From contig CABXRR010000003.1 of NCBI GenBank assembly GCA_902514695.1, forward strand, positions 1-64,000: DNA of 64,000 nucleotides, read 5' to 3'. Numbering within the stretch: the stretch's first letter is position 1; each line of letters starts with the position of its first letter. Both the position numbers and the translations under genes were made by a program. Source of the stretch: an uncultured Pelagibacteraceae bacterium (GTDB taxonomy: Bacteria > Pseudomonadota > Alphaproteobacteria > Pelagibacterales > Pelagibacteraceae). Positions 1 through 15,847 of this stretch are shown piece by piece. The notes beneath the pieces are model-generated. The model made no database searches and was not told where the DNA came from. It worked only from the letters and a program-made list of their open reading frames with translations.

Positions 1-1
1 A

Positions 2-847
2 AAAGATTATGATAATACCCTAAAAGTTTGTGATGGAGCAGATTACATATTTAATTTTGCTTGTAACATGGGTGGAATGGGTTTTATTGAAAATAATAAA
101 GCTGAATGTATGTTATCAGTACTCATTAATGCTAATTTATTAAGAGCCGCAAAGGAAAATAAAAGTAAAAAATACTTCTTCTCATCAAGTGCATGTGTTT
201 ATAATGGATCAAAACAAAATCAAACTTTTATAGAAGGTCTAAAAGAAACTGATGCATATCCAGCAGATCCAGAAGATGGATATGGTTGGGAAAAACTTTT
301 TAGCGAAAGAATGTGTAGACATTTTACAGAAGATTTTGGATTAGAAACTCGAGTAGTTAGATATCATAATATTTATGGACCCTTGGGAACTTTTGATGGT
401 GGTAGAGAAAAAGCTCCAGCTGCTCTTTGTAGAAAAATTATTAATGCCAAAAAAAATAATGTTAACAAGATCGATGTTTGGGGAGATGGAGAGCAAACTA
501 GGAGTTTTTTATATATAGATGATTGTATAAAAGGAACATTAGATGTTTTTAATAGCGACTCTTCGGAAGTATATAATATAGGAAGTGAAGAGCAGGTCTC
601 AATAAATCAAATGATAAAAATGATTGAGGAAATAGCTGAATTTGAAGTTAAAAAAAATTATCAATTAGATAAACCAAAAGGAGTAAGGGGTAGATCAAGT
701 GATAATAGTTATGTTACTGAGAAAATTGGATGGAAATCTGAAAATTCATTGAAAGAAGGTTTAACAAAAACTTATAAATGGATCGAACAACAAATTAATA
801 GTGGCACTAATATAGATAAGTTTTGTAGAGGAAGTATTGAAAAATAA
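2..847 (+). CDS. NAD-dependent epimerase, GDP-mannose 3,5-epimerase-like (5' truncated by window edge)
   Basis: Frame is open from base 2 upstream of the listed ATG (KDYDNTLKVCDGADYIFNFACNMGGMGF). Motifs MGGMGFI, SSACVY, YGWEK, HNIYGPLGTFDGGREKAPAALCRK, WGDGEQTRSFLYIDDC match the GDP-mannose 3,5-epimerase pattern of the SDR family. Confidence 0.85.
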   Translation, partial: KDYDNTLKVCDGADYIFNFACNMGGMGFIENNKAECMLSVLINANLLRAAKENKSKKYFFSSSACVYNGSKQNQTFIEGLKETDAYPADPEDGYGWEKLFSERMCRHFTEDFGLETRVVRYHNIYGPLGTFDGGREKAPAALCRKIINAKKNNVNKIDVWGDGEQTRSFLYIDDCIKGTLDVFNSDSSEVYNIGSEEQVSINQMIKMIEEIAEFEVKKNYQLDKPKGVRGRSSDNSYVTEKIGWKSENSLKEGLTKTYKWIEQQINSGTNIDKFCRGSIEK

Positions 848-861
848 CAAAAAATTTTAAA

Positions 862-1737
862 ATGAAAGCATTATGGCTTGTTTCTTTTAGACCAATAGGT
901 AAATCTAAAATAAATGATTTTTTTCAAAGTATTTTTGTAGATTCAATTAAAAGTTTAAAATTTAATATTACATTTAGTTTAACTCAATTTGATGAACCTA
1001 ATGTTCAAGAGTTTATCAGGGAAAAAAATATTAATAATAAATTTGTTAATATCCCAAAAAAAGAACTGCCAGAAGGAAAAAAATATTCTAATAAACTTAT
1101 GCTCGATAATGCATTAAATCAATTTATTGATGAAGGTGATTACCAATACCTAATATTTTCAACCGCTGACATTATTGTACCTAGTAATTTGTTCAAAGTT
1201 TTATCAAAGATTAAAGAAGATAAATTTTGTGCTTTTATTTATCCCAACACCCACGTAACAAATGGAAAAATTCAAAATAATTTTTGGCCTCATTATGGAA
1301 TAGATCTTATTGTGTTTAAAATCTCAAAGGATGATGCTGCAAAATTTAAAGAAATAATAAAAAGCTATAATCAATACGATTGGGGTATCATTGAAAATTT
1401 TTATATGGCAGCTGCTGAGGCGTTGAATTTAAAGCTGTTTAATTTGTTTAAATATTTAAATGTAATAAAATTTGATAATGATTTTGAGGCTTTTGTAGAA
1501 GATAGAAATTGGCAAATTAAAGCATGGAACGAAAATCAAAAATATTTCCTTGAATTTTTAAAATACAATAAACTTAGTAAACTTTATGCTTATGGCTCAT
1601 ACTATTACTTACTTTTAAAAATTTTAAGAATAAGAGACTTAAATTTAAATTTGTTATTGTCGTATTTAATTTTTTATCCATATAATTTAACGAAAAAAGT
1701 ATTATTTAAGATTAAAGAAATTTTTAAAAAAAGTTAA
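862..1737 (+). CDS. putative glycosyltransferase (GT-A-like), island gene
   Basis: 291 aa ORF with STADIIVPSN and HYGIDLIVFK segments resembling nucleotide-sugar transferases; located in polysaccharide cluster. Confidence 0.5.
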   Translation: MKALWLVSFRPIGKSKINDFFQSIFVDSIKSLKFNITFSLTQFDEPNVQEFIREKNINNKFVNIPKKELPEGKKYSNKLMLDNALNQFIDEGDYQYLIFSTADIIVPSNLFKVLSKIKEDKFCAFIYPNTHVTNGKIQNNFWPHYGIDLIVFKISKDDAAKFKEIIKSYNQYDWGIIENFYMAAAEALNLKLFNLFKYLNVIKFDNDFEAFVEDRNWQIKAWNENQKYFLEFLKYNKLSKLYAYGSYYYLLLKILRIRDLNLNLLLSYLIFYPYNLTKKVLFKIKEIFKKS

Positions 1738-1746
1738 TTAATTTTT

Positions 1747-3030
1747 ATGAATAAAATCTTTAGTGAAAAAAAAATTAATACATACATATTGTCAATAAGT
1801 ATAGTTTTTTTCATAATAATTAACTTTATATATTTTATTTTAAATCTTGATGTTAATCCAAATATATATGCTTTTAATGAATTGTTTATTAATTATCAGG
1901 CAGGTTTTATAAGAAGAGGATTATTAGGTGAATTTTTTTGGCAATTGAATGACAGATTTTCAATTAATCCAAAATTTTTTTTCAGTTCCTTTTTTTTCAT
2001 TATTTATTTAGCTCAAATATTTTTATTTTTTAAATTGTTTAAAAGATACATTGTATCTAAGTCGGTTTTTATCTTAATAGCATTGTCACCATCTTTTTTA
2101 CTTTTTCATATTTATAGCCCAGATTTATACTTTCTTAAAGATAGCATTATAAAATTTGCTTTCATATTACATGCTTATATTTTTTACAATTTTTTCGTAG
2201 TAAAAAAAAATAAAGAAATATATTTGGAATATTTAAAGTTTCTTATAATTCCAATTTTATTTGCAATTATTTTAACTCATGAATATCAGGTTTTTTCTTT
2301 GAGTTTACATTTTTTGATTTCCATTGGAGCTTCTAACAAAAAAGAAGATATAAAAAGAATTTTTATTTATTACTCTCCACTAATAATTTCAATACTCCTA
2401 GTAATAGTATTTCTTGGAAATCCAGTACAATTCGAAAATCTAAGTAATATTTTAAAAGTATTTAATGTAGAATTGAATGATTACCTTGGTGGAGGAATTT
2501 ATAAGTATATTGGTAGTTTCTATAAATGGCACTTTTTTTATTTCTCTTATGATGACTTTATAAGTCTTTTTTTAAGTTTTATATTTAGTGTATTAATTTT
2601 TTATATTTTATTTCAATATTTAATTGAAAAAAAAATTATTACTTTTCAATCAAAATATCAAAACAAATATTTATTATATTTTTTTCCTATTTTGATTCCT
2701 TTCCTATTAACATCAGATCATGGAAGAAATTTAGCGTTTTTATCTTTTTACTTAATATCTTTTTATTTAGTTTTAAACCTTAACCAACCTAAATTTATTA
2801 AACAAGTGAAAGTAATTTATAAAAATATTTTAACTAAAAATTTGATTTATATCTTTATATTTTTTTTTATTTTTATGTGGAAATTAGATCAATTTGCTGG
2901 TTTTGAATTACAAGGAAAACCAAATGGTATTTTTAAAAGTTCGTTATTTGCAGAATTCATAAAATTCATCAAATTTTTATACATTTACATAGATGTAAAC
3001 ATAATTAATTTACCAGAAATAAGACTATAA
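1747..3030 (+). CDS. multi-pass membrane protein of surface polysaccharide cluster
   Basis: 427 aa, many hydrophobic segments; N-terminal loop NYQAGFIRRGLLGEFFW. Confidence 0.6.
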   Translation: MNKIFSEKKINTYILSISIVFFIIINFIYFILNLDVNPNIYAFNELFINYQAGFIRRGLLGEFFWQLNDRFSINPKFFFSSFFFIIYLAQIFLFFKLFKRYIVSKSVFILIALSPSFLLFHIYSPDLYFLKDSIIKFAFILHAYIFYNFFVVKKNKEIYLEYLKFLIIPILFAIILTHEYQVFSLSLHFLISIGASNKKEDIKRIFIYYSPLIISILLVIVFLGNPVQFENLSNILKVFNVELNDYLGGGIYKYIGSFYKWHFFYFSYDDFISLFLSFIFSVLIFYILFQYLIEKKIITFQSKYQNKYLLYFFPILIPFLLTSDHGRNLAFLSFYLISFYLVLNLNQPKFIKQVKVIYKNILTKNLIYIFIFFFIFMWKLDQFAGFELQGKPNGIFKSSLFAEFIKFIKFLYIYIDVNIINLPEIRL

Positions 3031-3954
3031 TTTTTTTCCAATAAAAAAATAATGATTTTGCTTAAAAATAAAATTACCTTTATAAAATCTATTTTTTGTT
3101 ATTCTAATATTAAATTTATTTTTAAGTTTAATTTTTAAATTATTAAAGTATTTAAGGTTATCAATATTTTCGAATTTTTCTTGGAAACAAATAAAAATAT
3201 ATTTGCTATTAGCAATTTTAAAATAAAATTTATTTCTAAATTGAATGGGTGTTTCTGATAAAGACCAATTTGCAATAAATAAATCATTTTTTTCTTTTGT
3301 ATTCTCAAGTTTAGAATTTAAAAAAAAATTTTTATTTTTTTCAAATCCAACGTTTAAATTGTTGTGGCTCAGATAGTAATATTGCAACAAATTCACATAA
3401 AAAGTATCAAAACATGTATATTTAATATTTTTATTTATTTTTGAAAAAATTCTAGCCATGCAACCATATCCACCGCCAAATTCAAAAACTTTTTTAATCC
3501 TTTTTTTAAGTTTTATTTTCAATTCATTTTCCAAAACACTTAGATGATAAACATGATTTATTTTATTTCCTGAACTTTTTAAATATAAAAAGTATCTTAT
3601 TGGGTTTCCAATACTATCTTCAACTAAAAGATTTTTATAGAAATTCCATTTTTTTGATTTTTTTAGTTCCATTAGCTCTTGATATATAAAAAATCTATTC
3701 TGTAAAAAAAACATTTTTTGAATAAAGTTTTTTCTTAAAAAATTTTTTAAATTATTATCATGCAATAAATTAATAATCTTTTTATTAAATATTTTGTGTG
3801 TTTTTTGTAAATTATTACTATTTCGTCGAATTTTTTTTATTTTAGCTAATATATATTTTCTGAGTTTAATATCTTTATTTAAAGAAATTTTTTTATTAGG
3901 ATACCACGCACTTAGACTACCTGCAAAAAATCTTAACATATTACTTATTATCAT
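3025..3954 (-). CDS. putative sugar O-methyltransferase / SAM-dependent methyltransferase
   Basis: FEFGGGYGCMARIFSKI glycine-rich SAM motif; 309 aa; overall pattern of putative sugar O-methyltransferases. Confidence 0.6.
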   Translation of the reverse strand: MIISNMLRFFAGSLSAWYPNKKISLNKDIKLRKYILAKIKKIRRNSNNLQKTHKIFNKKIINLLHDNNLKNFLRKNFIQKMFFLQNRFFIYQELMELKKSKKWNFYKNLLVEDSIGNPIRYFLYLKSSGNKINHVYHLSVLENELKIKLKKRIKKVFEFGGGYGCMARIFSKINKNIKYTCFDTFYVNLLQYYYLSHNNLNVGFEKNKNFFLNSKLENTKEKNDLFIANWSLSETPIQFRNKFYFKIANSKYIFICFQEKFENIDNLKYFNNLKIKLKNKFNIRITKNRFYKGNFIFKQNHYFFIGKKL

Positions 3955-5306
3955 TTTCTAAAAAGATTTAGAATTAAAAGCAAAAGAAATATTAAATAGA
4001 GATTGATATTAAAAAAAGAGAGATAAAGCATGATTAAAAATAAAATTGAGTATAAGTAGTAGCCATTGACCTTTTGTATTTTGCGATTAAGGATATTTAA
4101 TCTTAAAAAAAATAAAATAACTTCTTTTGTTAAAATTAACAAACTTATTAATAGTAAAGAATAGTTTAAGCTTGTTAGATAATATAAAGAATATATAAAA
4201 AATGGCATCAAAAAAAACTCAATTTTAAGATTTTGATTTAAAGTTTTTGTAGCCTCAAATCTTGTAACTAATAAATGTGATGCACATGAAAAAATAACAC
4301 TAATGGAAAAAATTTTAGTTAAATTATTGATTGTTGTATTAAATGAATTTCCAAGCCAAAATTCTAAAATTAATGGGTAAAATGGAATAATCAAAAAAAT
4401 AATTACAGGAATAATCTTCATAAAAACCTGTAAAGAAAAATCTAGACTTTGATTATCAATTTTTCTTTTTGATAAATTTGGAAGAAGAAAAGCACTGAAG
4501 CTTTTAGAAATTATACTTAATTTTCCTGTCAGTTGCTGAGGTATTGAATATGTTGCAACAGCAACAGGTCCTATAAAAATTTTTATCAAATATTTATCAA
4601 ACAAATCATAAAATTGTATCAAAACACTATTTAAAGTTATCCATTTGCTGTTTTTCTTTAAATTATTAAACAAAATTTGGTTTTTTGATTTTTTTATAAG
4701 ATTATCTTTTTTTATAATTGAAAACATCATTAAGACAGATAAAAGTTTAATTATTATCGAAATTAAAATTAAATTTTCGAGTGTTAGATTGTAATTATAA
4801 GCTAGCAATATTGATGGTATAGAGATGCTTAAGCTATAAAAAAGTAAATTGAAAATACTTATGTATTTAAATTTTCGGTTACCCTGCAGTATCCCCTCTA
4901 AAGTCATAAAAAAAATTGTAATTATCGATCCAAAAAAGAAATACGAAATAATGTTAAAATATTTTGCATAATTGAAAAAAAAAGTTTCTCTAAAAAAAAA
5001 CATCAATATAAAAAATGTAAAAATAATTATTGAAATATTTGTTGTATAATTTAATGCGCAATAATTAATTTCTTCATTTTTTTTTGGGTAATTATTAATA
5101 CTGACAACTGTTGATTTTCCTATCCCAAAATTAAAATTTAATGAAATCATTAGTATAAAATGGAAAATCATATAATTACCATAACTTTCAGCTCCAGCAT
5201 AATTCAAATGAATTGGTATAGATAAGAGAGAAATGAAAATTGAAATAATACCAGGCAACGATAGAATAGCACTATTCTTTATTAACTTTTTAAATTTGAT
5301 TTTCAT
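3951..5306 (-). CDS. polysaccharide flippase (Wzx/MATE-like)
   Basis: 451 aa with about 12-14 hydrophobic segments; N-terminus NSAILSLPGIISIFISLLSIPIHLNYAGAESYGNYM typical of Wzx-type flippases. Confidence 0.8.
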   Translation of the reverse strand: MKIKFKKLIKNSAILSLPGIISIFISLLSIPIHLNYAGAESYGNYMIFHFILMISLNFNFGIGKSTVVSINNYPKKNEEINYCALNYTTNISIIIFTFFILMFFFRETFFFNYAKYFNIISYFFFGSIITIFFMTLEGILQGNRKFKYISIFNLLFYSLSISIPSILLAYNYNLTLENLILISIIIKLLSVLMMFSIIKKDNLIKKSKNQILFNNLKKNSKWITLNSVLIQFYDLFDKYLIKIFIGPVAVATYSIPQQLTGKLSIISKSFSAFLLPNLSKRKIDNQSLDFSLQVFMKIIPVIIFLIIPFYPLILEFWLGNSFNTTINNLTKIFSISVIFSCASHLLVTRFEATKTLNQNLKIEFFLMPFFIYSLYYLTSLNYSLLLISLLILTKEVILFFLRLNILNRKIQKVNGYYLYSILFLIMLYLSFFNINLYLIFLLLLILNLFRK

Positions 5307-6372
5307 TAATAAACTTTTCGATTATTCTTGTCATTGAGTATTTTTCTAAATAAAATTTTTTTGATTTATTTGCTCTTTTCTTAAACTCATTATTATTTTT
5401 AATTACATTGATAATTTCTTTAATTAATTTTGTTTTTTTATCAACAATGAAAGGAGGTTTTTTAGAGACAATATCTATTCCTTCGATACCTTTTTTTGAG
5501 GAAATTACTATTGCCCCCAAACAAAGTGCTTCTAAAATTTTTATTCGCGTGCCTGAACCAAATTTTAGTGGCACACATAAACATTTTGAAAAATAAATAT
5601 ATTTATATAAATCTGCTTTTGCCACAGTTCCTTTATTAATAATCCAAGTCAATTTTTTATTAAAACCACCTCCAGTAAGCATTAGTTTTAGATTAGGGAT
5701 TTTCTTTATCAAGATAGGCATTATATAATTATTCAAATAATCAATTGCATCTTTATTGGGTTTATAAAAATAGGAACCAGTATAGATTAAATAATCTCTT
5801 TTTTCTTTTCTTATCATTTTTTCTCTATCTAAGGAAATTCCATTAGGTAATAAAATTGTATTTACATTGTATAAAGATTTTATTTTCTTTCTCTCTCTTA
5901 AAGATACTGAGGTTGATAGATCTGAATATTTTAAAACTAATTTTTCTAAATATTTTGTTAAAAAGTATATAAGAAAATTTGAATATTTTTTCCTAATTTC
6001 AGATTCAATTGAATGAGAGATATATATTATTTTCACATTTGTTTTAAAAATCTTAAAAAAAAAGATAATTATGAAACTATAAAATATCCAACTTGCACCT
6101 TCTATAATTATTAATTTCTTTTTTGTATAATTAAAATATCTGTTAATTTTAAATATAACTTCTGGCAATTTGAATATTTTGTTTATTGGAGATTCTTTTT
6201 TGATAAAGATTGTTTCAATTTTTTTATTATTTATTTTATTTAAATGTGAAATTTGAAAAATCTTTTTCTCATATGGCCAACAATCAAATCTACTATTCAC
6301 AACAGTGGATGATCCCATTGTATTTGGTTTGATAGGGAAAAAAGTGACAAAAGCAGTTTTATTTTTTTTCAT
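5290..6372 (-). CDS. glycosyltransferase family 4-like
   Basis: 360 aa; YTGSYFYKPNKDAIDYL, FGSGTRIKILEALCLGAIVISSKKGIEGI are GT4 motifs. Confidence 0.8.
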   Translation of the reverse strand: MKKNKTAFVTFFPIKPNTMGSSTVVNSRFDCWPYEKKIFQISHLNKINNKKIETIFIKKESPINKIFKLPEVIFKINRYFNYTKKKLIIIEGASWIFYSFIIIFFFKIFKTNVKIIYISHSIESEIRKKYSNFLIYFLTKYLEKLVLKYSDLSTSVSLRERKKIKSLYNVNTILLPNGISLDREKMIRKEKRDYLIYTGSYFYKPNKDAIDYLNNYIMPILIKKIPNLKLMLTGGGFNKKLTWIINKGTVAKADLYKYIYFSKCLCVPLKFGSGTRIKILEALCLGAIVISSKKGIEGIDIVSKKPPFIVDKKTKLIKEIINVIKNNNEFKKRANKSKKFYLEKYSMTRIIEKFINENQI

Positions 6373-6472
6373 TTTGCTTATTAATAAAAAAATAAGTTAG
6401 ATTGCTAACTTTCTTATATAAATTATGGTACAAATTTATCACACTAATTGACTTATTTTTCAAAATATTTAA

Positions 6473-6500
6473 TTGCGTTTTTTATAAAAGTTATTATAAA
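6473..6500 (+). promoter_or_regulatory. candidate sigma70-type promoter for the 5S rRNA
   Basis: TTGCGT (6473-6478), 16 bp spacer, TATAAA (6495-6500), six nt before the mature 5S start. Confidence 0.4.
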
Positions 6501-6506
6501 GACTTC

Positions 6507-6622
6507 GCCTGGTAATTATTGCGAAAGGGTCATACCCGATCCCATTCCGAACTCGGAAGTCAAGCCTTTCTGCGCCGATGGTACTTTATCTTAAGATATG
6601 GAAGAGTAGGACTTTGCCAGGC
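6507..6622 (+). rRNA. rrf: 5S ribosomal RNA
   Basis: GCCTGG...CCAGGC terminal helix; core GGTCATACCCGATCCCATTCCGAACTCGGAAGTCAAGCC and GCGCCGATGGTACT are 5S signatures. Confidence 0.95.
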
Positions 6623-6633
6623 TAAATTCTAAA

Positions 6634-7512
6634 ATGAAAAATCTTATAATTGTAACTGGTGGATCAGGATTTGTAGGATCAAATTTAATCAAGCTTCTCT
6701 TAAAAAAAACAAATAAAAAAATAATTAGTATAGATAATTATTCATCTGGATCAAAAAAAAATCATGTAAAAAGTTCAAGAGTTAAATATATATCGAGTGA
6801 TACCTCAGAAATTGAAAAAAAATTAATAAAATTTAAAAACAAGATTCATTCATTATTTCATTTTGGTGAGTTTGCCAGGATCTTTAAAAGCTTTGAAAAA
6901 TTTGATGAATGTTTGAAATCTAATTTAATAGGTACAAATGCTGTTTTTAAATTTTGTTTAGAAAATAAGATTAAATTAATTTACTCTGCCACATCTGCAA
7001 CCTTAGGGAATAATGGTAAAGATGAAAATTTATCTCCATATGCTTTTACAAAATCAAAAAATTTAGAGTTATTAGAGAATTTAAAAAAGTGGTTTAATTT
7101 TAAATATGAGGTAATTTATTTTTATAATGTATATGGACCAGGACAAATCAAAAAGGGTTCAATGGCAACTGTAATAGGTATTTTTGAGGATCAATTTGTG
7201 AATAAGAAACCATTAACAGTTGTAAAACCTGGTAATCAATCTAGAAGATTTACTCATATTCATGACACAGTAAACATTTGTTATGAAGCATGGAAAAAAA
7301 ATAAATGTTCTCATTATTCTATAACTCACAGAAAATCTTACTCAATTATTGAAGTGGCAAAAATGTTTAAAAGAAAGATAGTTTTTTTGAAAAAAAGACG
7401 AGGAGAGCGGTATGCCTCAGCTTTAACAAAGATATCATTGAATAATAGGGTATTTCGAAGATATGGAAAAATAAATTTGAAAGATTACGTATCTTCGTTT
7501 ATTAAGAGTTAA
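6634..7512 (+). CDS. NAD-dependent epimerase/dehydratase (UDP-glucose 4-epimerase-like)
   Basis: IIVTGGSGFVGSNL Rossmann motif, SATSATLG, YAFTK catalytic motif, NVYGPGQ. Confidence 0.85.
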   Translation: MKNLIIVTGGSGFVGSNLIKLLLKKTNKKIISIDNYSSGSKKNHVKSSRVKYISSDTSEIEKKLIKFKNKIHSLFHFGEFARIFKSFEKFDECLKSNLIGTNAVFKFCLENKIKLIYSATSATLGNNGKDENLSPYAFTKSKNLELLENLKKWFNFKYEVIYFYNVYGPGQIKKGSMATVIGIFEDQFVNKKPLTVVKPGNQSRRFTHIHDTVNICYEAWKKNKCSHYSITHRKSYSIIEVAKMFKRKIVFLKKRRGERYASALTKISLNNRVFRRYGKINLKDYVSSFIKS

Positions 7513-7518
7513 AATTTT

Positions 7519-7644
7519 ATGAAAATTAAAAGTTCACTTAAATCTATAAAAAAAAGAGACTTAAACTCTAAATTGGTAAGAAGAAGAGGTAGAGTTTATA
7601 TTATTAATAAAACTAATCCAAAATTTAAAGCAAGACAGAAGTAA
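7519..7644 (+). CDS. rpmJ: 50S ribosomal protein L36
   Basis: Translated by eye: [41 protein letters not shown]. Not in the supplied ORF track (41 aa). Confidence 0.9.
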
Positions 7645-7648
7645 TTTT

Positions 7649-7759
7649 ATGGATAATGAAAACCATAAAAAGACTTGGAATAATTTTACAAAGTTTGTAC
7701 TGTGGGGAACTGTCGCTGTTGTATTGGTTTTAATTCTAATGGCAATATTCCTGTTGTAA
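7649..7759 (+). CDS. aa3-type cytochrome c oxidase subunit IV-like small membrane protein
   Basis: MDNENHKKTWNNFTKFVLWGTVAVVLVLILMAIFLL*, 36 aa, single TM; position immediately upstream of pntA matches the small CoxIV family of alphaproteobacteria. Not in ORF track. Confidence 0.7.
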   Translation: MDNENHKKTWNNFTKFVLWGTVAVVLVLILMAIFLL

Positions 7760-7768
7760 GGTTATTAG

Positions 7769-8857
7769 ATGAAAGTAGTTTCTATTTTAGAAGATCAAAA
7801 TATTGAAAAAAGAATTGCAGTAACACCCGAAACTGCAAAAAAATATATTTCATTAGGAATCGATGTTTCACTTCAAAAAAACTATGGAGCTCATCTTGGT
7901 TTTGAGGATAGTCTTTACAAAGATTTAGGTGTAAAGATTGTTGATGATGAAAAAGATATATTTGATAATGCAGATATAGTCTTACAATTAGGATTGCCAT
8001 CAGATAATAAATTATCTTATTTAAAAGAAAATCAATCTATAATTGGGGTTTTAAATCCTTATTTAAATAAAAAAAAAATAGATGATTTGATTAAAAAAAA
8101 AATAAATAATTTCTCACTAGAGTTATTACCAAGAATTACAAGAGCTCAATCTATGGATATATTATCTTCACAAGCTAATTTAGCAGGATATAAAGCTGTA
8201 ATAGAGTCATTTGCACACTTTGAGAAAGCTATACCAATGATGATGACAGCAGCTGGTACTGTACCAGCAGCAAAAGTTTTAATAGTAGGTGCTGGAGTTG
8301 CTGGCTTGCAAGCGATTGCTACCGCAAAAAGAATGGGTGCAATTGTTTTTGCCACTGATGTTAGAATGGCTTCTAAGGAACAGGTTGAAAGTTTAGGAGG
8401 CAAATTTTTAAGTGTTGATGGTACAGAAAATCTTGAAACAGAAGGTGGTTATGCAAAAGAAGCATCTGATGAATTTAAAAAAAAACAAGAGGAACTTCTA
8501 GCTGAAACACTAAAAAAAATTGATATTGTTATTTGCACGGCTCTTATCCCTGGAAAAAAAGCTCCTGTGATTATTAAAGAAGATATGATTAAAAATATGA
8601 ACACTGGATCAATAATTTATGATTTAGCAGCAATTCAGGGTGGCAACACTGCTTTCACTGAAGTAGATAAAATTATAGATAAAGGAGGAGTAAAAATAAT
8701 GGGTGAGACAAATATTCTAAATAAATTGCCAACTTCAGCTTCTAATCTTTATGCAAAAAATGTATTTAATTTCGTTTCGAATCTTTATGATAAAGAAAAT
8801 AAAAAAATTAATATTAATCTTGAAGATGAGATCATAGAAAAAACATTGTTGAAATGA
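7769..8857 (+). CDS. pntAA: Re/Si-specific NAD(P)+ transhydrogenase subunit alpha, part 1
   Basis: KRIAVTPETAKKYISLGIDVSLQKNYGAHLGF, VLIVGAGVAGLQAIATAKRMGAIVFATDVR. Confidence 0.95.
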   Translation: MKVVSILEDQNIEKRIAVTPETAKKYISLGIDVSLQKNYGAHLGFEDSLYKDLGVKIVDDEKDIFDNADIVLQLGLPSDNKLSYLKENQSIIGVLNPYLNKKKIDDLIKKKINNFSLELLPRITRAQSMDILSSQANLAGYKAVIESFAHFEKAIPMMMTAAGTVPAAKVLIVGAGVAGLQAIATAKRMGAIVFATDVRMASKEQVESLGGKFLSVDGTENLETEGGYAKEASDEFKKKQEELLAETLKKIDIVICTALIPGKKAPVIIKEDMIKNMNTGSIIYDLAAIQGGNTAFTEVDKIIDKGGVKIMGETNILNKLPTSASNLYAKNVFNFVSNLYDKENKKININLEDEIIEKTLLK

Positions 8858-9168
8858 TTATGGAAATAGACCCTTTTATATTTAGATTAAGTATTTTTAT
8901 ACTATCAATATTTGTTGGATATTATGTTGTTTGGAGTGTGACACCATCTTTGCATACCCCATTAATGTCCGTAACAAATGCAATTTCTTCAGTGATAATT
9001 GTAGGTGCTATAATTGCTGCTTTAGCAAAATATGGAGACAGTGTATTTTCTACATCAAGCTTATTTGGATACTTTGCTATTTCATTAGCTGCAATTAATA
9101 TTTTTGGTGGATTTTTAGTAACTCATAGAATGTTGGCTATGTATAAAAAGAAAAAGAAAGAAAAATAA
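8854..9168 (+). CDS. pntAB: NAD(P)+ transhydrogenase subunit alpha, part 2 (membrane)
   Basis: GYYVVWSVTPSLHTPLMSVTNAISSVIIVGA; overlaps pntAA stop by 4 nt. Confidence 0.93.
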   Translation: MIMEIDPFIFRLSIFILSIFVGYYVVWSVTPSLHTPLMSVTNAISSVIIVGAIIAALAKYGDSVFSTSSLFGYFAISLAAINIFGGFLVTHRMLAMYKKKKKEK

Positions 9169-9170
9169 TT

Positions 9171-10565
9171 ATGTCAGCAAACCTATCAGCAGTCTTTTAT
9201 TTAATTTCAGGTGTTTTATTTATCTTAGCATTGAGAGGTTTGTCCTCACCAGAAACCTCAAGACAAGGTAATCTTTTTGGAATAATTGGAATGGTAATAG
9301 CTATTAGTGTTACATTTCTGTCAGTTGGAAATTTTTCAACTGGTTTTTTATATGTTTTGATTTTTTTAATAATAGGTGGTGCGATAGGTTCGTTTATAGC
9401 TTTTAAAATTCCCATGACTGCTATGCCAGAACTTGTAGCGGGATTTCATAGTCTAGTTGGTTTAGCGGCTGTGTTAGTTGCTGTTTCTGCATTTATTAAT
9501 CCTGAGGCATTTAATCTTGGTACACCAGGTAATATTAAACTTGCTAGTTTAATAGAGATGTCGATAGGTGCAGCTGTAGGAGCAATTACTTTCTCTGGGT
9601 CTATTATAGCTTTTTTAAAACTACAGGGAATAATGTCAGGTGCACCGATAACTTTTAGAGGGCAGCATTTATTAAATGCTCTTATTCTAATTTCTATTGT
9701 CGTTTTAACTTATTTATTATGTGCGTCGCAATCTTCTAGTCTATTTTGGATTTTAATTGGTGTCTCATTTTTAATTGGGTTTTTATTAATTATTCCAATT
9801 GGTGGAGCCGATATGCCAGTAGTTATATCAATGCTAAATTCATACTCTGGTTGGGCTGCAGCTGGAATAGGTTTCACTTTGGAAAACACAGCATTAATTA
9901 TTACAGGTGCTTTAGTTGGTTCATCTGGGGCAATTCTCTCTTACATAATGTGTAAGGGTATGAACAGATCTTTTTTTAATGTCATCTTAGGAGGATTTGG
10001 TGCAACTGAACAATCTACTTCTAATAAAGATAAAGAGCAGAGACCTGTTAAAAGTGGTAATGCAGATGATGCAGCTTTTTTAATGAAAAATGCTTCATCA
10101 GTTATAATTGTACCTGGTTATGGAATGGCAGTTGCTCAAGCACAACATGCTTTAAGAGAAATGGTTGATACTTTGAAAAAAAATGACATAAAAGTTTCAT
10201 ATGCAATACACCCGGTTGCAGGAAGAATGCCAGGTCATATGAATGTATTGTTGGCAGAGGCAAATGTCCCCTATGATGAGGTTTTTGAATTAGAGGAAAT
10301 AAATAATGATTTTGCAAATGCAGATGTAGCATTTGTAATAGGAGCTAATGATGTAACAAACCCAGTTGCAAAAACTGATCCTCAAAGTCCAATTTATGGT
10401 ATGCCCGTATTGGATGTGGAAAAATGTAAATCAGTTTTATTTGTTAAAAGAAGTCTATCACCTGGATATGCAGGAATTGATAATGATCTTTTTTATAAAG
10501 AAAATACCTTAATGTTATTTGCTGATGCAAAAAAAATGACAGAGGATATTACAAAAAATCTTTAA
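9171..10565 (+). CDS. pntB: NAD(P)+ transhydrogenase subunit beta
   Basis: GADMPVVISMLNSYSGWAAAGIGF, VIIVPGYGMAVAQAQHALREM, HPVAGRMPGHMNVLLAEANVPYDEV. Confidence 0.97.
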   Translation: MSANLSAVFYLISGVLFILALRGLSSPETSRQGNLFGIIGMVIAISVTFLSVGNFSTGFLYVLIFLIIGGAIGSFIAFKIPMTAMPELVAGFHSLVGLAAVLVAVSAFINPEAFNLGTPGNIKLASLIEMSIGAAVGAITFSGSIIAFLKLQGIMSGAPITFRGQHLLNALILISIVVLTYLLCASQSSSLFWILIGVSFLIGFLLIIPIGGADMPVVISMLNSYSGWAAAGIGFTLENTALIITGALVGSSGAILSYIMCKGMNRSFFNVILGGFGATEQSTSNKDKEQRPVKSGNADDAAFLMKNASSVIIVPGYGMAVAQAQHALREMVDTLKKNDIKVSYAIHPVAGRMPGHMNVLLAEANVPYDEVFELEEINNDFANADVAFVIGANDVTNPVAKTDPQSPIYGMPVLDVEKCKSVLFVKRSLSPGYAGIDNDLFYKENTLMLFADAKKMTEDITKNL

Positions 10566-10574
10566 ATAATTAAT

Positions 10575-10651
<77 letters not shown>

Positions 10652-10657
10652 ATATTA

Positions 10658-10864
10658 TTAAATTCGGTTCTTAAGTTTGTTTAATTTTTTTACTCTTTTA
10701 ATATTTTCCTGGAGTATTCTTTTTTTCTTTTCAGACGGCTTTTCATAAGTATTTTTTAATTTAATAACCTTAAAAAATCCATCTCTCTGAAGTTTTCTTT
10801 TTAAAACTCTCAGTGCTTGTTCAACATTATTATCTTTTACTTCTATTTTAATAACTACCTCCAA
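10658..10864 (-). CDS. rpsU: 30S ribosomal protein S21
   Basis: VEQALRVLKRKLQRDGFFKVIKLKNTYEKPSEKKKR. Confidence 0.93.
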   Translation of the reverse strand: MEVVIKIEVKDNNVEQALRVLKRKLQRDGFFKVIKLKNTYEKPSEKKKRILQENIKRVKKLNKLKNRI

Positions 10865-10908
10865 AAAAATGCATAGTTAACATCTTTATAATTTTATGTC
10901 TATTTAAT

Positions 10909-11487
10909 TTATTCATTGATTCCAGTTTGTTTGAGTTTTTCCTTAAGTTTTTTTTCTCTCTTTATTCTTCTTTCAGCTTTTTCAATTGCTTCTATTAAAT
11001 CTTTTTGGGTAAATAAATTGAGTGCCACAGGATCTTTTGCTGATAAATTATTATAATTCCAATAACTCTTATTTCTTATAGAAGTAACAGAGTTCTTTGT
11101 AATTCCTACTAATCTAGCAATTTGTGAATCTTTCAATATATTATGCTGTTTAATAAGCCAGAGAGCTGAATCAGGTTTATCTTGACGTTTTGATAATGGA
11201 ACATATTTTTTTATTTTTTTTTCTTCATTAGAAATTTCAATGTCTGAACTTTTTATTTCTAATGGTCTATTTTCATCTTTTGATGATAGGTCAATCTCTT
11301 CCCTTGAAAGCTGTCCAGATATAATTGGATTATAAGCTTTAATACCCTTTGCCACTTCTCCATCTGCGATACCTTGGATTTCAACTTCATGCAGTTTACA
11401 AAAATCTGCTATTTGTTTAAATGTAAGAGTTGTATTTTCAACGAGCCATACAGCAGTTGCCATTGGCATTAAAGGTGCATTTGACAT
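10909..11487 (-). CDS. trcR: DUF1013 protein, cell cycle transcriptional regulator TrcR-like
   Basis: PLMPMATAVWLVENTTLTFKQIADFCKLHEVEIQGIADGEVA and SALWLIKQHNILKDSQIARLVGITKNSVTSIRNKSYWN. Confidence 0.85.
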   Translation of the reverse strand: MSNAPLMPMATAVWLVENTTLTFKQIADFCKLHEVEIQGIADGEVAKGIKAYNPIISGQLSREEIDLSSKDENRPLEIKSSDIEISNEEKKIKKYVPLSKRQDKPDSALWLIKQHNILKDSQIARLVGITKNSVTSIRNKSYWNYNNLSAKDPVALNLFTQKDLIEAIEKAERRIKREKKLKEKLKQTGINE

Positions 11488-11718
11488 TTAGCTTTTTTTT
11501 TCTGATTTAAAATTTTGAAATTTTTTATTAAATTTACTAATTCTTCCTTTATCCATCAATTTCTGTTTTCCGCCAGTCCAGGCAGAGTGAGACTTAGGGT
11601 CAATTTCTAGTTTAAGCAAATCACCTTCAGCCCCCCAAGTTGATTTTGTTTCAAATTGAGTGCCATCAGTCATCTCCACTTTTATAGTGTGGTAGTTAGG
11701 ATGAATTTTTTTTTTCAT
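11488..11718 (-). CDS. rpmE: 50S ribosomal protein L31
   Basis: [29 protein letters not shown]...[28 protein letters not shown]. Confidence 0.95.
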
Positions 11719-11753
11719 TTCGAGACTTATAGCAAATGATTTTTTTAAAACAA

Positions 11754-12494
11754 TTAAAAGTTATGTAATTTTTCTTGGAATTTTGTGTTTATATTTGGAT
11801 TAGACGCAATAACATTTATATTTTCAAGGTTATTAAGGTTTATGTCATTTATTATTCCACCTGCCTCTTTAACCAAAACAATACCAGCCGCAATATCCCA
11901 CAAATTTAAATCTTTTTGAAAATATCCATCATATCTTCCTGATGCAACATATGCTAAATCTAAAGCAGCACATCCAGTTTTTCTACTCGGAAAACCTAGT
12001 TCACTCCCAATGTTTCCACTTATTGCAAATAAACAATCTTGAATATTATTTTTATTAGAAACCCTTATCCTTTGATTGTTGAAAAAAGCACCATTATTTT
12101 TTTCGGCAAAAAAAATTTCATTTTTTATTGGATCAAAAATTAATCCTGAGATTATCTCATCATTTGATTTTAAGGCGATAGATATTGCAAAATGAGGAAT
12201 ACCATGTAAAAAATTTATAGTGCCATCAATCGGGTCAATTATCCATGTATTGTTATTATCCTTATTATTTTTAATCCCTCTTTCTTCAGATATTAAGGAG
12301 TAGGTTGGCCTTGCTTTTTCTAATTCTTCTATAATTATTTTTTCTACCTTAAAATCAGAATTAGTTACAAAATCTGTTGGTCCTTTTTTAGATACTTGTA
12401 ATTTTTCAATTTCTCCAAAATCTCTAATTAATGTCTTCGAAGCTTTTTCACTTGCTTTAATCATTACATTTAAGTTAGCCGAAATCGAATTCAT
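11754..12494 (-). CDS. suhB: inositol monophosphatase family protein
   Basis: [51 protein letters not shown]. Confidence 0.9.
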
Positions 12495-12498
12495 AAAA

Positions 12499-13059
12499 TC
12501 AAATTTTTTTTACATACTCAAGATTTCTAGTATCAATAATTACCTCATCTCCAGATTCAATAAAGGGAGGTACCTGAATGTTCAAACCATTATCAAGCAC
12601 AGCTGGTTTATATGACGAGGAAACTGTTTGACCTTTAAGAGCTGCATCAGTTGTTTCTATTTTGCATGTCACTTGATTTGGCAAATCAACGGAAATTGGA
12701 GCATCGTTATAAAAACTTACCGATACCTCTAGGTTTTCAGTAAGCAATTTACCTTTTTCACCAATAATATCTTTTTTAATTTCTATTTGTTCAAAAGTTT
12801 TTGGCTGTATAAAAAAATATCCGTTTTCATCTTCATATAAAAAATTGTAATTAATTTCCTCCAAAGAAGCTTTTTCTACAGTTTCATTTGATCTAAATCT
12901 TTCATTCAATTTTGTATTTTTATTAACGCTTTTCATTTCAACTTGTGCAAATGCTCCGCCCTTTCCTGGTTTTACGTGTTGGGTTTTAAGTACTTGCCAT
13001 AAATCATTCTTATACTCTATCAACATTCCTACTCTTATTTCACCAGCGTTAATTTTCAT
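12499..13059 (-). CDS. efp: elongation factor P
   Basis: GEIRVGMLIEYKNDLWQVLKTQHVKPGKGGAFAQVEMKSVNKNTKLNERFRS. Confidence 0.96.
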   Translation of the reverse strand: MKINAGEIRVGMLIEYKNDLWQVLKTQHVKPGKGGAFAQVEMKSVNKNTKLNERFRSNETVEKASLEEINYNFLYEDENGYFFIQPKTFEQIEIKKDIIGEKGKLLTENLEVSVSFYNDAPISVDLPNQVTCKIETTDAALKGQTVSSSYKPAVLDNGLNIQVPPFIESGDEVIIDTRNLEYVKKI

Positions 13060-13670
13060 TTTAGATATTTAATTGCCTCAGTTGGTTTGTATTTTTTATT
13101 CTTCCAAATGTAGCCTGAGATAGCTAAAAAGTTTGCTTTATTCAACAGTAGTTTTTGATAATTATGTGAATTAATACCACCAATAGCAACAATTGGAGTT
13201 TTTGTTATTTTTTTTATCCTTTTAAGTAAATTTATATTAGCTTTATATTTAGTTTTTTTTGTTTTTGATGTATTAAATGCTCCTAAAGCCAAATAATCAG
13301 CTTTATTCTTTATTGCAGCTTTAACTAGTTTAATTGAATTATGACAAGTAATTCCAATAATCTTATTTTTGAAGTACTTTTTAGCTTTAAGTATATGCAT
13401 ATCCTTTTGACCTAAATGACATCCATCAGAATTTAATTCTTTAGCAAGATGAACGTCATCATTAATTATTAATTTTGTATTATATTTTTTGCAAATTTTT
13501 TTTACTTTCTTTCCAATTAATAGTTTTTTTTTAAAAGATGTGTTTTTGAGCCTGAGTTGAAAGAAACTAACTTTTTTTAATTTTAATATTTCAATTAAGT
13601 CATTAAAAAATTTATTTTCTATTTTGTTGGGTGATATGAGATAAATAAATTTTTTTTTATTGATTTTCAA
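13056..13670 (-). CDS. thiE: thiamine phosphate synthase
   Basis: FQLRLKN, KLIINDDVHLAKELNSDGCHLGQKDM, TPIVAIGGIN. Confidence 0.87.
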   Translation of the reverse strand: MKINKKKFIYLISPNKIENKFFNDLIEILKLKKVSFFQLRLKNTSFKKKLLIGKKVKKICKKYNTKLIINDDVHLAKELNSDGCHLGQKDMHILKAKKYFKNKIIGITCHNSIKLVKAAIKNKADYLALGAFNTSKTKKTKYKANINLLKRIKKITKTPIVAIGGINSHNYQKLLLNKANFLAISGYIWKNKKYKPTEAIKYLK

Positions 13671-14667
13671 TTTCTTTTGACCATTTTCCCTGAGCTGCTA
13701 ATGTATTCATTTTTGCTCTATGATTGAAAATTCTCTGAGTGCCATCGATGTCTTGTATATTTTTTGACCAAAATTTTAAAGCACTTTGTTGAAGAGCTCT
13801 ACCATAAGAATAGCTCATTATAAAATTTGTATCATTTAATTTATTTATTAAATTAAGATTTTCTGTTGCCTCTAATTCTGATTGTCCACCAGATAAAAAT
13901 GCGATACCTGGCACTTCAGATGGGACTGAATTTTTTAAACATTCCAAAGTTAACTTTGCAATTTCCTCATTAGAAATTTTATTTTTAGATTTATTACCTG
14001 ATAAAATCATGTTGGGTTTTAATATAATTCCTGTTAAATCAACTTTGTGTAAAATAAGCTCTTCAAAACATTTTTTTATTACTTCAGAGGTTTTTTGATA
14101 ACAGTCTTTTGCCGAATGATCACCATCCATTAATACTTCAGGCTCAACAATAGGAACCATATTAGATTCTTGAACTAATGCAGAGTATCTAGCTAGCGCA
14201 TGAGCATTCGATTGTATGGATAGTTTGCTGGGATAATCTTTAGATATATTATAAACACCTCTCCATTTTGTAAATTTTGCCCCAAGATGAAAATATTCTC
14301 TCAATCTATCTCTTAACCCATCAAGACCTTCTGTAATTTTTTCATTCGGTGATCCTGCTAAAACTTTTGCTCCTGTATCCACTTTTATACCAGGATGAGA
14401 GCCCATAGATGAAATTAATTCTGGGATCTTGTTTTTTTTAGAAGATGTTTGTTTAATAGTTTCATCATATAAAATCACACCACCTATAAATTCTTTCATA
14501 CCCAAAGAACTAAAAAGAGTTTCTCTAAACAATAGTCTATTTTCTGGAGTTGATGGAACACTGACACCCTCTAATCTTTTTGTCATTGTGCCAGTGCTTT
14601 CATCAGCAGCCAGAATTCCTTTTCCATTGTTTAAAATTTCTAATGCTATTTTATTTAGTTCAGACAT
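13657..14667 (-). CDS. fbaB: class I fructose-bisphosphate aldolase
   Basis: GKGILAADESTGTMTKRLEGVSV, VPIVEPEVLMDG, ILKPNMILSG, GIAFLSGGQS, SYGRALQQSALKFW; class I motifs. Confidence 0.92.
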   Translation of the reverse strand: MSELNKIALEILNNGKGILAADESTGTMTKRLEGVSVPSTPENRLLFRETLFSSLGMKEFIGGVILYDETIKQTSSKKNKIPELISSMGSHPGIKVDTGAKVLAGSPNEKITEGLDGLRDRLREYFHLGAKFTKWRGVYNISKDYPSKLSIQSNAHALARYSALVQESNMVPIVEPEVLMDGDHSAKDCYQKTSEVIKKCFEELILHKVDLTGIILKPNMILSGNKSKNKISNEEIAKLTLECLKNSVPSEVPGIAFLSGGQSELEATENLNLINKLNDTNFIMSYSYGRALQQSALKFWSKNIQDIDGTQRIFNHRAKMNTLAAQGKWSKEIENQ

Positions 14668-14668
14668 A

Positions 14669-15847
14669 TTAATTTAAAGCTTTTATACCAGGAAGTTCTT
14701 TTCCTTCAAGATATTCTAAAAATGCTCCACCAGCAGTTGAAACAAAATTAAAATTATTAATTACATTGATTTGATTCAAAACTGCAATTGTATCTCCACC
14801 ACCTGCTATAGAATAAATCAAATTATTTTTACTTTTCTCAACAATTTTTTTTGCAATCTCATAACTACCTAATGCAAAACTAGGGTTTTCAAAGTAACCT
14901 GCTGGACCATTCCACAAAATAGTTTCACTTTTTTCAATTATATTTTGAATTTTATTTACAGTTCTTGGTCCAATGTCTAAGATTAAATCATCATTATTTA
15001 CTTCATTTAATTCTTTGATTTGAGCCTTATCTTCTTTATTTTTTCCTACAACAACATCTTCAGGATAGATAATTTTACATGAATGGTTTTTTGCAGTTTT
15101 AAAAATGTCCTCAATAATCGACTCACAATTATCCTCTTTAATTGATTTTCCTATTGGTTTTCCTAAATAATTGAGAATATTATTAGCCATACCACCCACA
15201 ATAATAATATTATCAAATTTCGGTATTAAATTTTTTATTATACTGATTTTTGTTGAGATTTTTGATCCTCCAACAATGCATGCAATAGGTTTTTTTATTT
15301 CAGTTGTTACTTTTTTTAATGCATTAATCTCTGTTTCTAATTGTAAACCAGCATAAGAAGGTAAAAATTCAGTAATTTTACTAACTGAAGCGTGAGCTCT
15401 GTGTGAACAAGAAAAAGCATCATTCACAAATATGTCTGCTAGTTTTGATAAATGTTTTGAAAAAATTGTGTCATTTTTTTCTTCTTGCTCATAAAATCTA
15501 ATATTTTCCAAAAAAATAATTTGTTCTTTTGGATCATTAAATAAATTATCTCTTTTAAGCTCTAAAATATTATCTTTAATGAGGCTAACTTTTTGATTTA
15601 ATTTTTTTTCTAAACTTTCACAAATTGGCTTAAGCGAAAGAGCTTTATCAACCTTACCTTTCGGTCGACCAACATGAGAAATGACTAAAATCTTAGATTT
15701 CTTTTTTATTAAAAAATTAATTACAGGTAATATTTTATCTATTCTTGTTTGGTCTGTAATCATTCCATTTTTGAGAGGAACATTTAAATCTAGTCTCAAT
15801 AAAACTATTTTTTCACTCAAATTTTCTTGATCTTTAATATATTTCAT
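14669..15847 (-). CDS. pgk: phosphoglycerate kinase
   Basis: VLLRLDLNVPLKNG, ISHVGRPKG, FVNDAFSCSHRAHAS, WNGPAGYFE, AGGGDT. Confidence 0.97.
   Translation of the reverse strand: MKYIKDQENLSEKIVLLRLDLNVPLKNGMITDQTRIDKILPVINFLIKKKSKILVISHVGRPKGKVDKALSLKPICESLEKKLNQKVSLIKDNILELKRDNLFNDPKEQIIFLENIRFYEQEEKNDTIFSKHLSKLADIFVNDAFSCSHRAHASVSKITEFLPSYAGLQLETEINALKKVTTEIKKPIACIVGGSKISTKISIIKNLIPKFDNIIIVGGMANNILNYLGKPIGKSIKEDNCESIIEDIFKTAKNHSCKIIYPEDVVVGKNKEDKAQIKELNEVNNDDLILDIGPRTVNKIQNIIEKSETILWNGPAGYFENPSFALGSYEIAKKIVEKSKNNLIYSIAGGGDTIAVLNQINVINNFNFVSTAGGAFLEYLEGKELPGIKALN

What the first reader, a model, noticed from the sequence alone, without database searches (positions are those of the whole stretch)
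6373..6634. Orphan 5S rRNA at the edge of a surface-polysaccharide island
A clear 5S rRNA (6507-6622) has no 23S, 16S or tRNA upstream. Instead, 6.4 kb of polysaccharide genes abut it. I recall that in SAR11 genomes a hypervariable region lies between 16S-23S and the 5S, so the rRNA operon is split by an island. This window looks like the 5S-side boundary and could serve as a fixed anchor for comparing island contents.
Basis: partly seen in the sequence, partly recalled or inferred. Interest (0 to 1): 0.62.

Follow-up and report, generated by a model that had tools for sequence, protein, structure and literature searches.

The report
Split ribosomal operon flanks SAR11 island
This is the right-hand edge of the known variable surface-sugar island that separates the 5S ribosomal RNA gene from its partners in SAR11 ocean bacteria; comparing relatives suggests that the 5S moved to the far side of an older island and is exchanged together with it, so it is less of a fixed landmark than assumed.

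Summary
A good 5S rRNA gene lies at 6507-6622, the only 5S found in this 68%-complete SAR11 genome. The only 23S is on another contig, as 16S-tRNAIle-tRNAAla-23S, and it runs into island genes 34 bp later with no 5S. Both contigs end inside the island.

In 23 relatives with both genes on one contig, 23S and 5S are on the same strand, 13-88 kb apart.

The "fixed anchor" idea is only partly right. Across 141 loci an epimerase sits just after the 5S (as here), just before it, or is absent. This state follows the epimerase tree (4 changes) far better than the pntA tree (17). The 5S is exchanged with the island; rpmJ-pntA is the steadier edge.

I found no published account of these points. The 5S has its own conserved promoter, and a coding sequence starts 6-38 nt after it, so it probably heads a ribosomal-protein mRNA. 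In a sister family 23S-5S is intact, yet the variable island occupies the same place; so the island probably came first and the 5S moved.

The parts
1..6372 (.). Right-hand end of the hypervariable surface-polysaccharide island (HVR2), cut by the contig start at position 1
   Evidence: Contig start; Pfam epimerase 68-847, Polysacc_synt 3951-5306, glycosyltransferase 5290-6372; not conserved among 150 congeners while the core is; GC 22.0%
6473..6500 (+). Predicted sigma70-type promoter of the 5S: TTGCGT (6473-6478), 16-nt spacer, TATAAA (6495-6500), 6 nt before the 5S
   Evidence: 8 of 12 consensus matches here, weak on its own; in 141 loci the mean at this exact place is 9.48 against 6.53-6.54 in controls
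6507..6622 (+). 5S ribosomal RNA gene, the only copy found in the genome
   Evidence: RF00001 86.9 bits at 6508-6622; helix I extends to G6507-C6622; single copy
6634..7512 (+). NAD-dependent sugar epimerase/dehydratase, 11 nt after the 5S. In relatives it lies after the 5S, before it, or is absent
   Evidence: Pfam PF01370, 107 bits; position in 141 loci
7519..7644 (+). rpmJ, ribosomal protein bL36; first gene of the stable right flank
   Evidence: PF00444 E 7.6e-17; present in all three main configurations
7649..7759 (+). 36-codon gene for an aa3-type cytochrome c oxidase subunit IV-like membrane peptide; overlaps Rfam RF01810 'pntA sRNA' (7645-7706)
   Evidence: PF07835 E 2.3e-12, 47.4 bits, cut-off 22; 83% of codon differences synonymous against 20% expected; RF01810
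7769..8857 (+). pntA, transhydrogenase alpha subunit; conserved core marker used as the stable reference
   Evidence: Found in the right flank of relatives and in the sister-family genomes searched

Best explanation
This is the right edge of the SAR11 HVR2 O-chain island, with the genome's single 5S rRNA gene displaced from 16S-tRNAIle-tRNAAla-23S by the width of the island. Shown here: the 5S is single-copy in the assembly and unlinked from 23S; relatives have the same layout; the left edge of the island is a short conserved tail after 23S; the next coding sequence begins 6-38 nt after the 5S. Inferred: the 5S is transcribed from its own promoter ending about 6 nt upstream, starts almost exactly at its mature 5' end, and reads on into the next gene (epimerase then rpmJ here, rpmJ directly in many relatives). 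Processing of the 5S 3' end would then release a short-leader mRNA for bL36. Inferred from comparison: the island was already next to the rRNA operon in the ancestor shared with the sister family, and the 5S later moved from the left edge to the right edge. Today the right-end exchange of the island usually carries the 5S and the epimerase along, with crossovers between this block and rpmJ-pntA, and some inside the block.
For: Single 5S and single 23S on different contigs, with 23S followed by LuxC/LuxE-like genes on the opposite strand. 23 relatives with both genes on one contig: same strand, 13.0-88.2 kb apart. After 23S, 18 nt (tgcactgaaaaaaatttt) are nearly invariant in 30 genomes and then similarity ends. 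CDS start 6-38 nt after the 5S in 132 of 132 loci of the three main configurations, and no terminator-like site in window 6373-8000. Promoter: mean 9.48/12 at the 5S, 61% of loci score 10 or more, against 6.5 and 0.5% in Markov and position-slid controls; three intact sister operons score only 4-5 there. Exchange: the A/B state changes 4 times on the epimerase tree against 17 on the pntA tree of the same 76 genomes; the 5S helix I allele changes 3 against 12 times (shuffled 13.8); segment trees step from 3-8 changes (5S, epimerase) to 16-18 (rpmJ, gap, pntA); one clade of B rows is rejected on pntA (p 2e-6), not on epimerase (p 0.059). Sister family: intact 23S-5S, non-conserved island after the 5S, same left flank (ubiG-lysC-ispG-prfA-prmC-peptidase-16S), and rpmJ-pntA 34-80 kb downstream on the same strand.
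Against: The two contigs of this genome are not joined, and the genome is 68% complete. The window's own promoter matches only 8 of 12 positions, which chance gives often; the case rests on relatives. No transcript data were available, so co-transcription and processing are inferred. Label changes on trees were counted against shuffles that ignore relatedness, with quick trees. Within configuration A the epimerase does correlate with pntA and rpmJ (0.21, 0.26) and not with the 5S (0.07), so breakpoints also fall between 5S and epimerase: the block is not rigid. Haro-Moreno 2025 (PMC11898729) finds whole-island swaps rare within shared O-chain types, so the exchanges seen here may be old.
Confidence: 0.85

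Rival explanations
1. Classical reading: an island inserted into an intact 16S-23S-5S operon in the ancestor of Pelagibacteraceae, pushing the 5S away in one step.
For: Most Alphaproteobacteria sampled have 23S-5S adjacent (26 of 29 loci). The published wording treats the operon as split by the island (PMC7318151).
Against: The sister family has a non-conserved sugar island in the same chromosomal place, directly after an intact 23S-5S, with the same left flank and rpmJ-pntA to the right. Under this reading two islands must have arisen independently at one spot.
Confidence: 0.25
2. Vertical inheritance only: the ancestor carried epimerases on both sides of the 5S, and lineages lost one or the other; no exchange of the 5S is needed.
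For: Positions A and B follow different epimerase lineages. Within A the epimerase correlates weakly with pntA.
Against: No genome among 141 has the epimerase on both sides. Under loss, 5S alleles should follow pntA, but the 5S helix I allele is as random on the pntA tree and clustered on the epimerase tree, and 5S distance does not correlate positively with pntA distance over the whole set (-0.17).
Confidence: 0.15
3. Assembly artefact: the 5S is next to 23S in the real genome and the contig starting at window position 1 is a misjoin.
For: Incomplete genome; window starts at a contig end.
Against: The order 5S-(epimerase)-rpmJ-pntA is found in more than 130 independent genomes, several on single contigs with 23S 46-62 kb away. 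The 23S contig continues 2.7 kb past 23S without a 5S.
Confidence: 0.02

Closest known systems
HVR2 of 'Candidatus Pelagibacter ubique' HTCC1062 (Wilhelm et al. 2007, PMC2217521)
   Same: Surface-polysaccharide island of about 48 kb between the sole 23S and the sole 5S; high AT; cell-surface genes
   Different: That paper proposes 23S and 5S as the recombination sites. Here the 5S appears to be inside the exchanged unit and the edge to be rpmJ-pntA
O-chain biosynthetic clusters (OBC) of Pelagibacterales (Haro-Moreno et al. 2025, PMC11898729)
   Different: They treat the 5S as the end marker and leave out clades IV and V. The movable epimerase would be counted in or out of the island depending only on which side of the 5S it lies
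Replacement flexible island of HTCC1002/1062 (Lopez-Perez et al. 2014, PMC4033161)
   Same: SNP peaks just before 16S and after the 5S (highest in pntB) indicated that the rRNA genes travel with the O-chain cluster; agrees with the present result
   Different: One strain pair; here 76-141 genomes, with the position switch of the epimerase as marker
Intact operon of SAR11 subclades IV and V (PMC7318151, PMC3815206)
   Same: 16S-23S-5S in one operon, as in the sister family studied here (records titled Pelagibacteraceae bacterium AG-422-B15 and similar)
   Different: The passages I read do not say that the variable island lies directly after that intact operon. Whether the sister family equals subclade IV was not tested

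Membership tests
SAR11 HVR2 / O-chain island | 5S separated from 16S-23S, no second copies | tested here: met
   One 5S, one 23S on another contig without an adjacent 5S; genome 68% complete
SAR11 HVR2 / O-chain island | 23S and 5S flank one contiguous island, same strand | tested here: inconclusive
   Met in 23 relatives on one contig; in this genome both contigs end inside island sequence and are not joined
SAR11 HVR2 / O-chain island | Surface-polysaccharide gene content | tested here: met
   Epimerase, flippase, glycosyltransferase by Pfam in 1-6372
SAR11 HVR2 / O-chain island | Not conserved between close relatives while flanks are | tested here: met
SAR11 HVR2 / O-chain island | Conserved flanks (core genes before 16S; rpmJ-pntA after the 5S) | tested here: met
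   Left-flank proteins of this genome match those of the sister-family genomes and G017/G022 in order; right flank in more than 130 loci
5S rRNA (RF00001) | Covariance model above gathering score, closing helix intact | tested here: met
   86.9 bits against 38

The most novel reading that the evidence does not exclude
In Pelagibacteraceae the 5S gene was moved from the near to the far side of an already existing surface-antigen island. It then became an autonomously promoted, terminator-less head of the bL36 (rpmJ) message, so that 5S rRNA and a ribosomal protein are made from one transcript, and it now travels between lineages with the island.
Probability: 0.5. Interest if true: 0.62.

Novelty: new member of a known kind. 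Interest (0 to 1): 0.45.

Why it matters
HVR2 is the main seat of strain diversity in one of the most abundant groups of marine bacteria, and the 5S has served as its right-hand landmark. If the 5S moves with the island, island comparisons should be anchored on rpmJ-pntA, and 5S sequences should not be read as marking the strain's ancestry. A 5S that heads a ribosomal-protein mRNA would be an unusual way to link rRNA and ribosomal-protein output in a streamlined cell. The sister family gives a before-state in which the order of events can be tested.

Tried and rejected
Full 23S covariance search over about 200 genomes failed on the server; replaced by an 800-nt blast query. Some genomes showed no 23S or only part of one, ending at round coordinates; I took this as masking, so absence of 23S there was not used. 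Search for 5S remnants behind 23S in 30 relatives found none; apart from one weak 24-nt match in L080, no second 5S-like copy appeared in the right-edge loci. The generic promoter scan did not single out the 5S promoter in this window, so the claim was moved to aligned relatives with two controls. An early impression that the 5S block is rigid was dropped after the distance correlations within A and B. Papers were searched for a 5S-rpmJ link: one paper held the terms, and the passages read do not describe it.

Full report
Observation. No other rRNA and no tRNA lies upstream in the window. The genome (753,695 bases, 39 contigs, 68% complete) has one 5S and one 23S, on contig C17 at 9278-12030. 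C17 reads ubiG, lysC, ispG, prfA, prmC, a peptidase gene, 16S, tRNA-Ile, tRNA-Ala, 23S, and then, 34 bp later and on the opposite strand, LuxC- and LuxE-like genes up to near its end at 14,772 (the first gene names are my reading of the proteins). Window position 1 is the start of contig C3. The assembly therefore breaks inside the island on both sides.

Identity. This is HVR2. Wilhelm et al. [quoted passage not shown] Later papers found it in other SAR11 groups, freshwater ones included (PMC3815206, PMC4053759, PMC6018831). Haro-Moreno et al. 2025 used 23S and 5S as hallmarks to collect 806 islands (PMC11898729). In 23 genomes of the same family that carry both genes on one contig, they lie on one strand 13.0-88.2 kb apart and never adjacent (coordinates). 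The stretch 1-6372 is not conserved in 150 congeners, while 7513-13884 is.

Edges. After 23S, 18 nucleotides are nearly invariant in 30 genomes and then nothing aligns. On the right I compared 141 loci. Three main layouts occur: A, 5S-epimerase-rpmJ-pntA, as here (52); B, epimerase-5S-rpmJ-pntA (25, plus 4 with another gene after the 5S); C, 5S-rpmJ-pntA without the epimerase (55). Three have other genes between 5S and rpmJ, and two could not be typed. None has the epimerase on both sides.

Exchange. On the same 76 genomes the A/B state changes 4 times on the epimerase tree and 17 times on the pntA tree (shuffled about 23). The 5S helix I allele (CCTGG or GCCGG) changes 3 times on the epimerase tree and 12 on the pntA tree, the latter as in shuffles. 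Trees of short segments show the step: 5S 8, epimerase thirds 3, 6 and 3, rpmJ 16, gap 16, pntA quarters 18, 18, 18 and 17. The AU test rejects a single clade of B genomes on pntA (p 2e-6) but not on the epimerase (p 0.059); for the GCCGG allele the values are 4e-4 and 0.197. Distances agree overall (5S-epimerase 0.22, 5S-pntA -0.17, rpmJ-pntA 0.29), but within A the epimerase leans to the core side, so breakpoints occur inside the block too. This fits Lopez-Perez et al. 2014 (PMC4033161), who saw SNP peaks outside 16S and 5S in one strain pair.

Expression (inferred). A promoter of the TTTACA/TTGACA, 16-17 nt, TATAAN type ends 4-8 nt before the 5S in nearly all loci: mean 9.48 of 12 matches, 61% with 10 or more, against 6.53 and 6.54 and 0.5% in two controls. 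The window's copy (6473-6500) scores 8. In three sister-family genomes, where the 5S follows 23S, the same place scores 4-5. The next coding sequence starts 6-38 nt after the 5S in all 132 loci of types A, B and C, and the window has no terminator-like site in 6373-8000. The simplest reading is a 5S-headed mRNA for the epimerase and bL36, or bL36 alone, with 5S 3' processing releasing the message. No RNA data were available.

Origin. In the sister family of the same order (record titles: Pelagibacteraceae bacterium AG-422-B15 and other single-cell genomes) the 5S lies about 90-100 bp after 23S. Three regions read in full share the left flank with the window's genome. Variable genes begin within about 50 bp of the 5S in two of them and after 1.2 kb in the third. 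The variable part is not conserved even between two genomes (G493, G496) whose left-flank proteins are mostly 87-97% identical. rpmJ lies 34-78 kb downstream and pntA about 2-3 kb beyond it, on the same strand. In the wider class 26 of 29 loci have 23S beside the 5S, and none has rpmJ after it. The parsimonious order is island first, 5S displacement later; independent islands at one site cannot be excluded. In other genera of the family a tRNA-Val stands just upstream of the 5S in most loci. How the 5S moved is not known.

Verdict. Observation confirmed, interpretation correct but already published, and the anchor claim in need of correction. The additions are the exchange of the 5S with the island, the probable 5S-headed mRNA and the island-first order.

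Noticed in passing
window 7645-7759: Rfam RF01810 'pntA sRNA' coincides with the start of a conserved 36-codon gene, a COX4_pro_2 (PF07835) peptide, E 2.3e-12. 101 of 139 loci keep it, 90 distinct peptides; 83% of codon differences are synonymous against 20% expected. The Rfam pairs are hardly better than shuffled (86.2% against 85.0% canonical). The family may be mostly coding sequence.
   Followed up: yes
L106, L109, L112, L114-L119, L121-L124: In other genera of the family a tRNA-Val(GAC) lies about 65-90 bp upstream of the orphan 5S on the same strand in most loci, somewhat further in a few; it is absent there in the window's genus.
   Followed up: partly
L063:12064-14458: LuxC- and LuxE-like genes (acyl-CoA reductase, acyl-protein synthetase) are the first island genes after 23S in the window's own genome.
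   Followed up: no
window 68-847 and congeners: The first ORF (another epimerase) has 69-77% relatives that lie just upstream of the 5S in several congeners (for example G255, G271), so more than one sugar-enzyme gene changes place around the 5S.
   Followed up: partly
L091, L193, L198, L199, L071, L176, L112: Seven loci have an extra gene or genes between the 5S and rpmJ, so the 5S-rpmJ junction itself accepts insertions.
   Followed up: no
sister-family loci L301, L305, and G496 in L308-L311: The intact 5S is enclosed by an inverted repeat (ttcacgttttgttga ... tctactaaacgtgaa), probably a processing stem, that is not seen at the displaced 5S of this window.
   Followed up: partly
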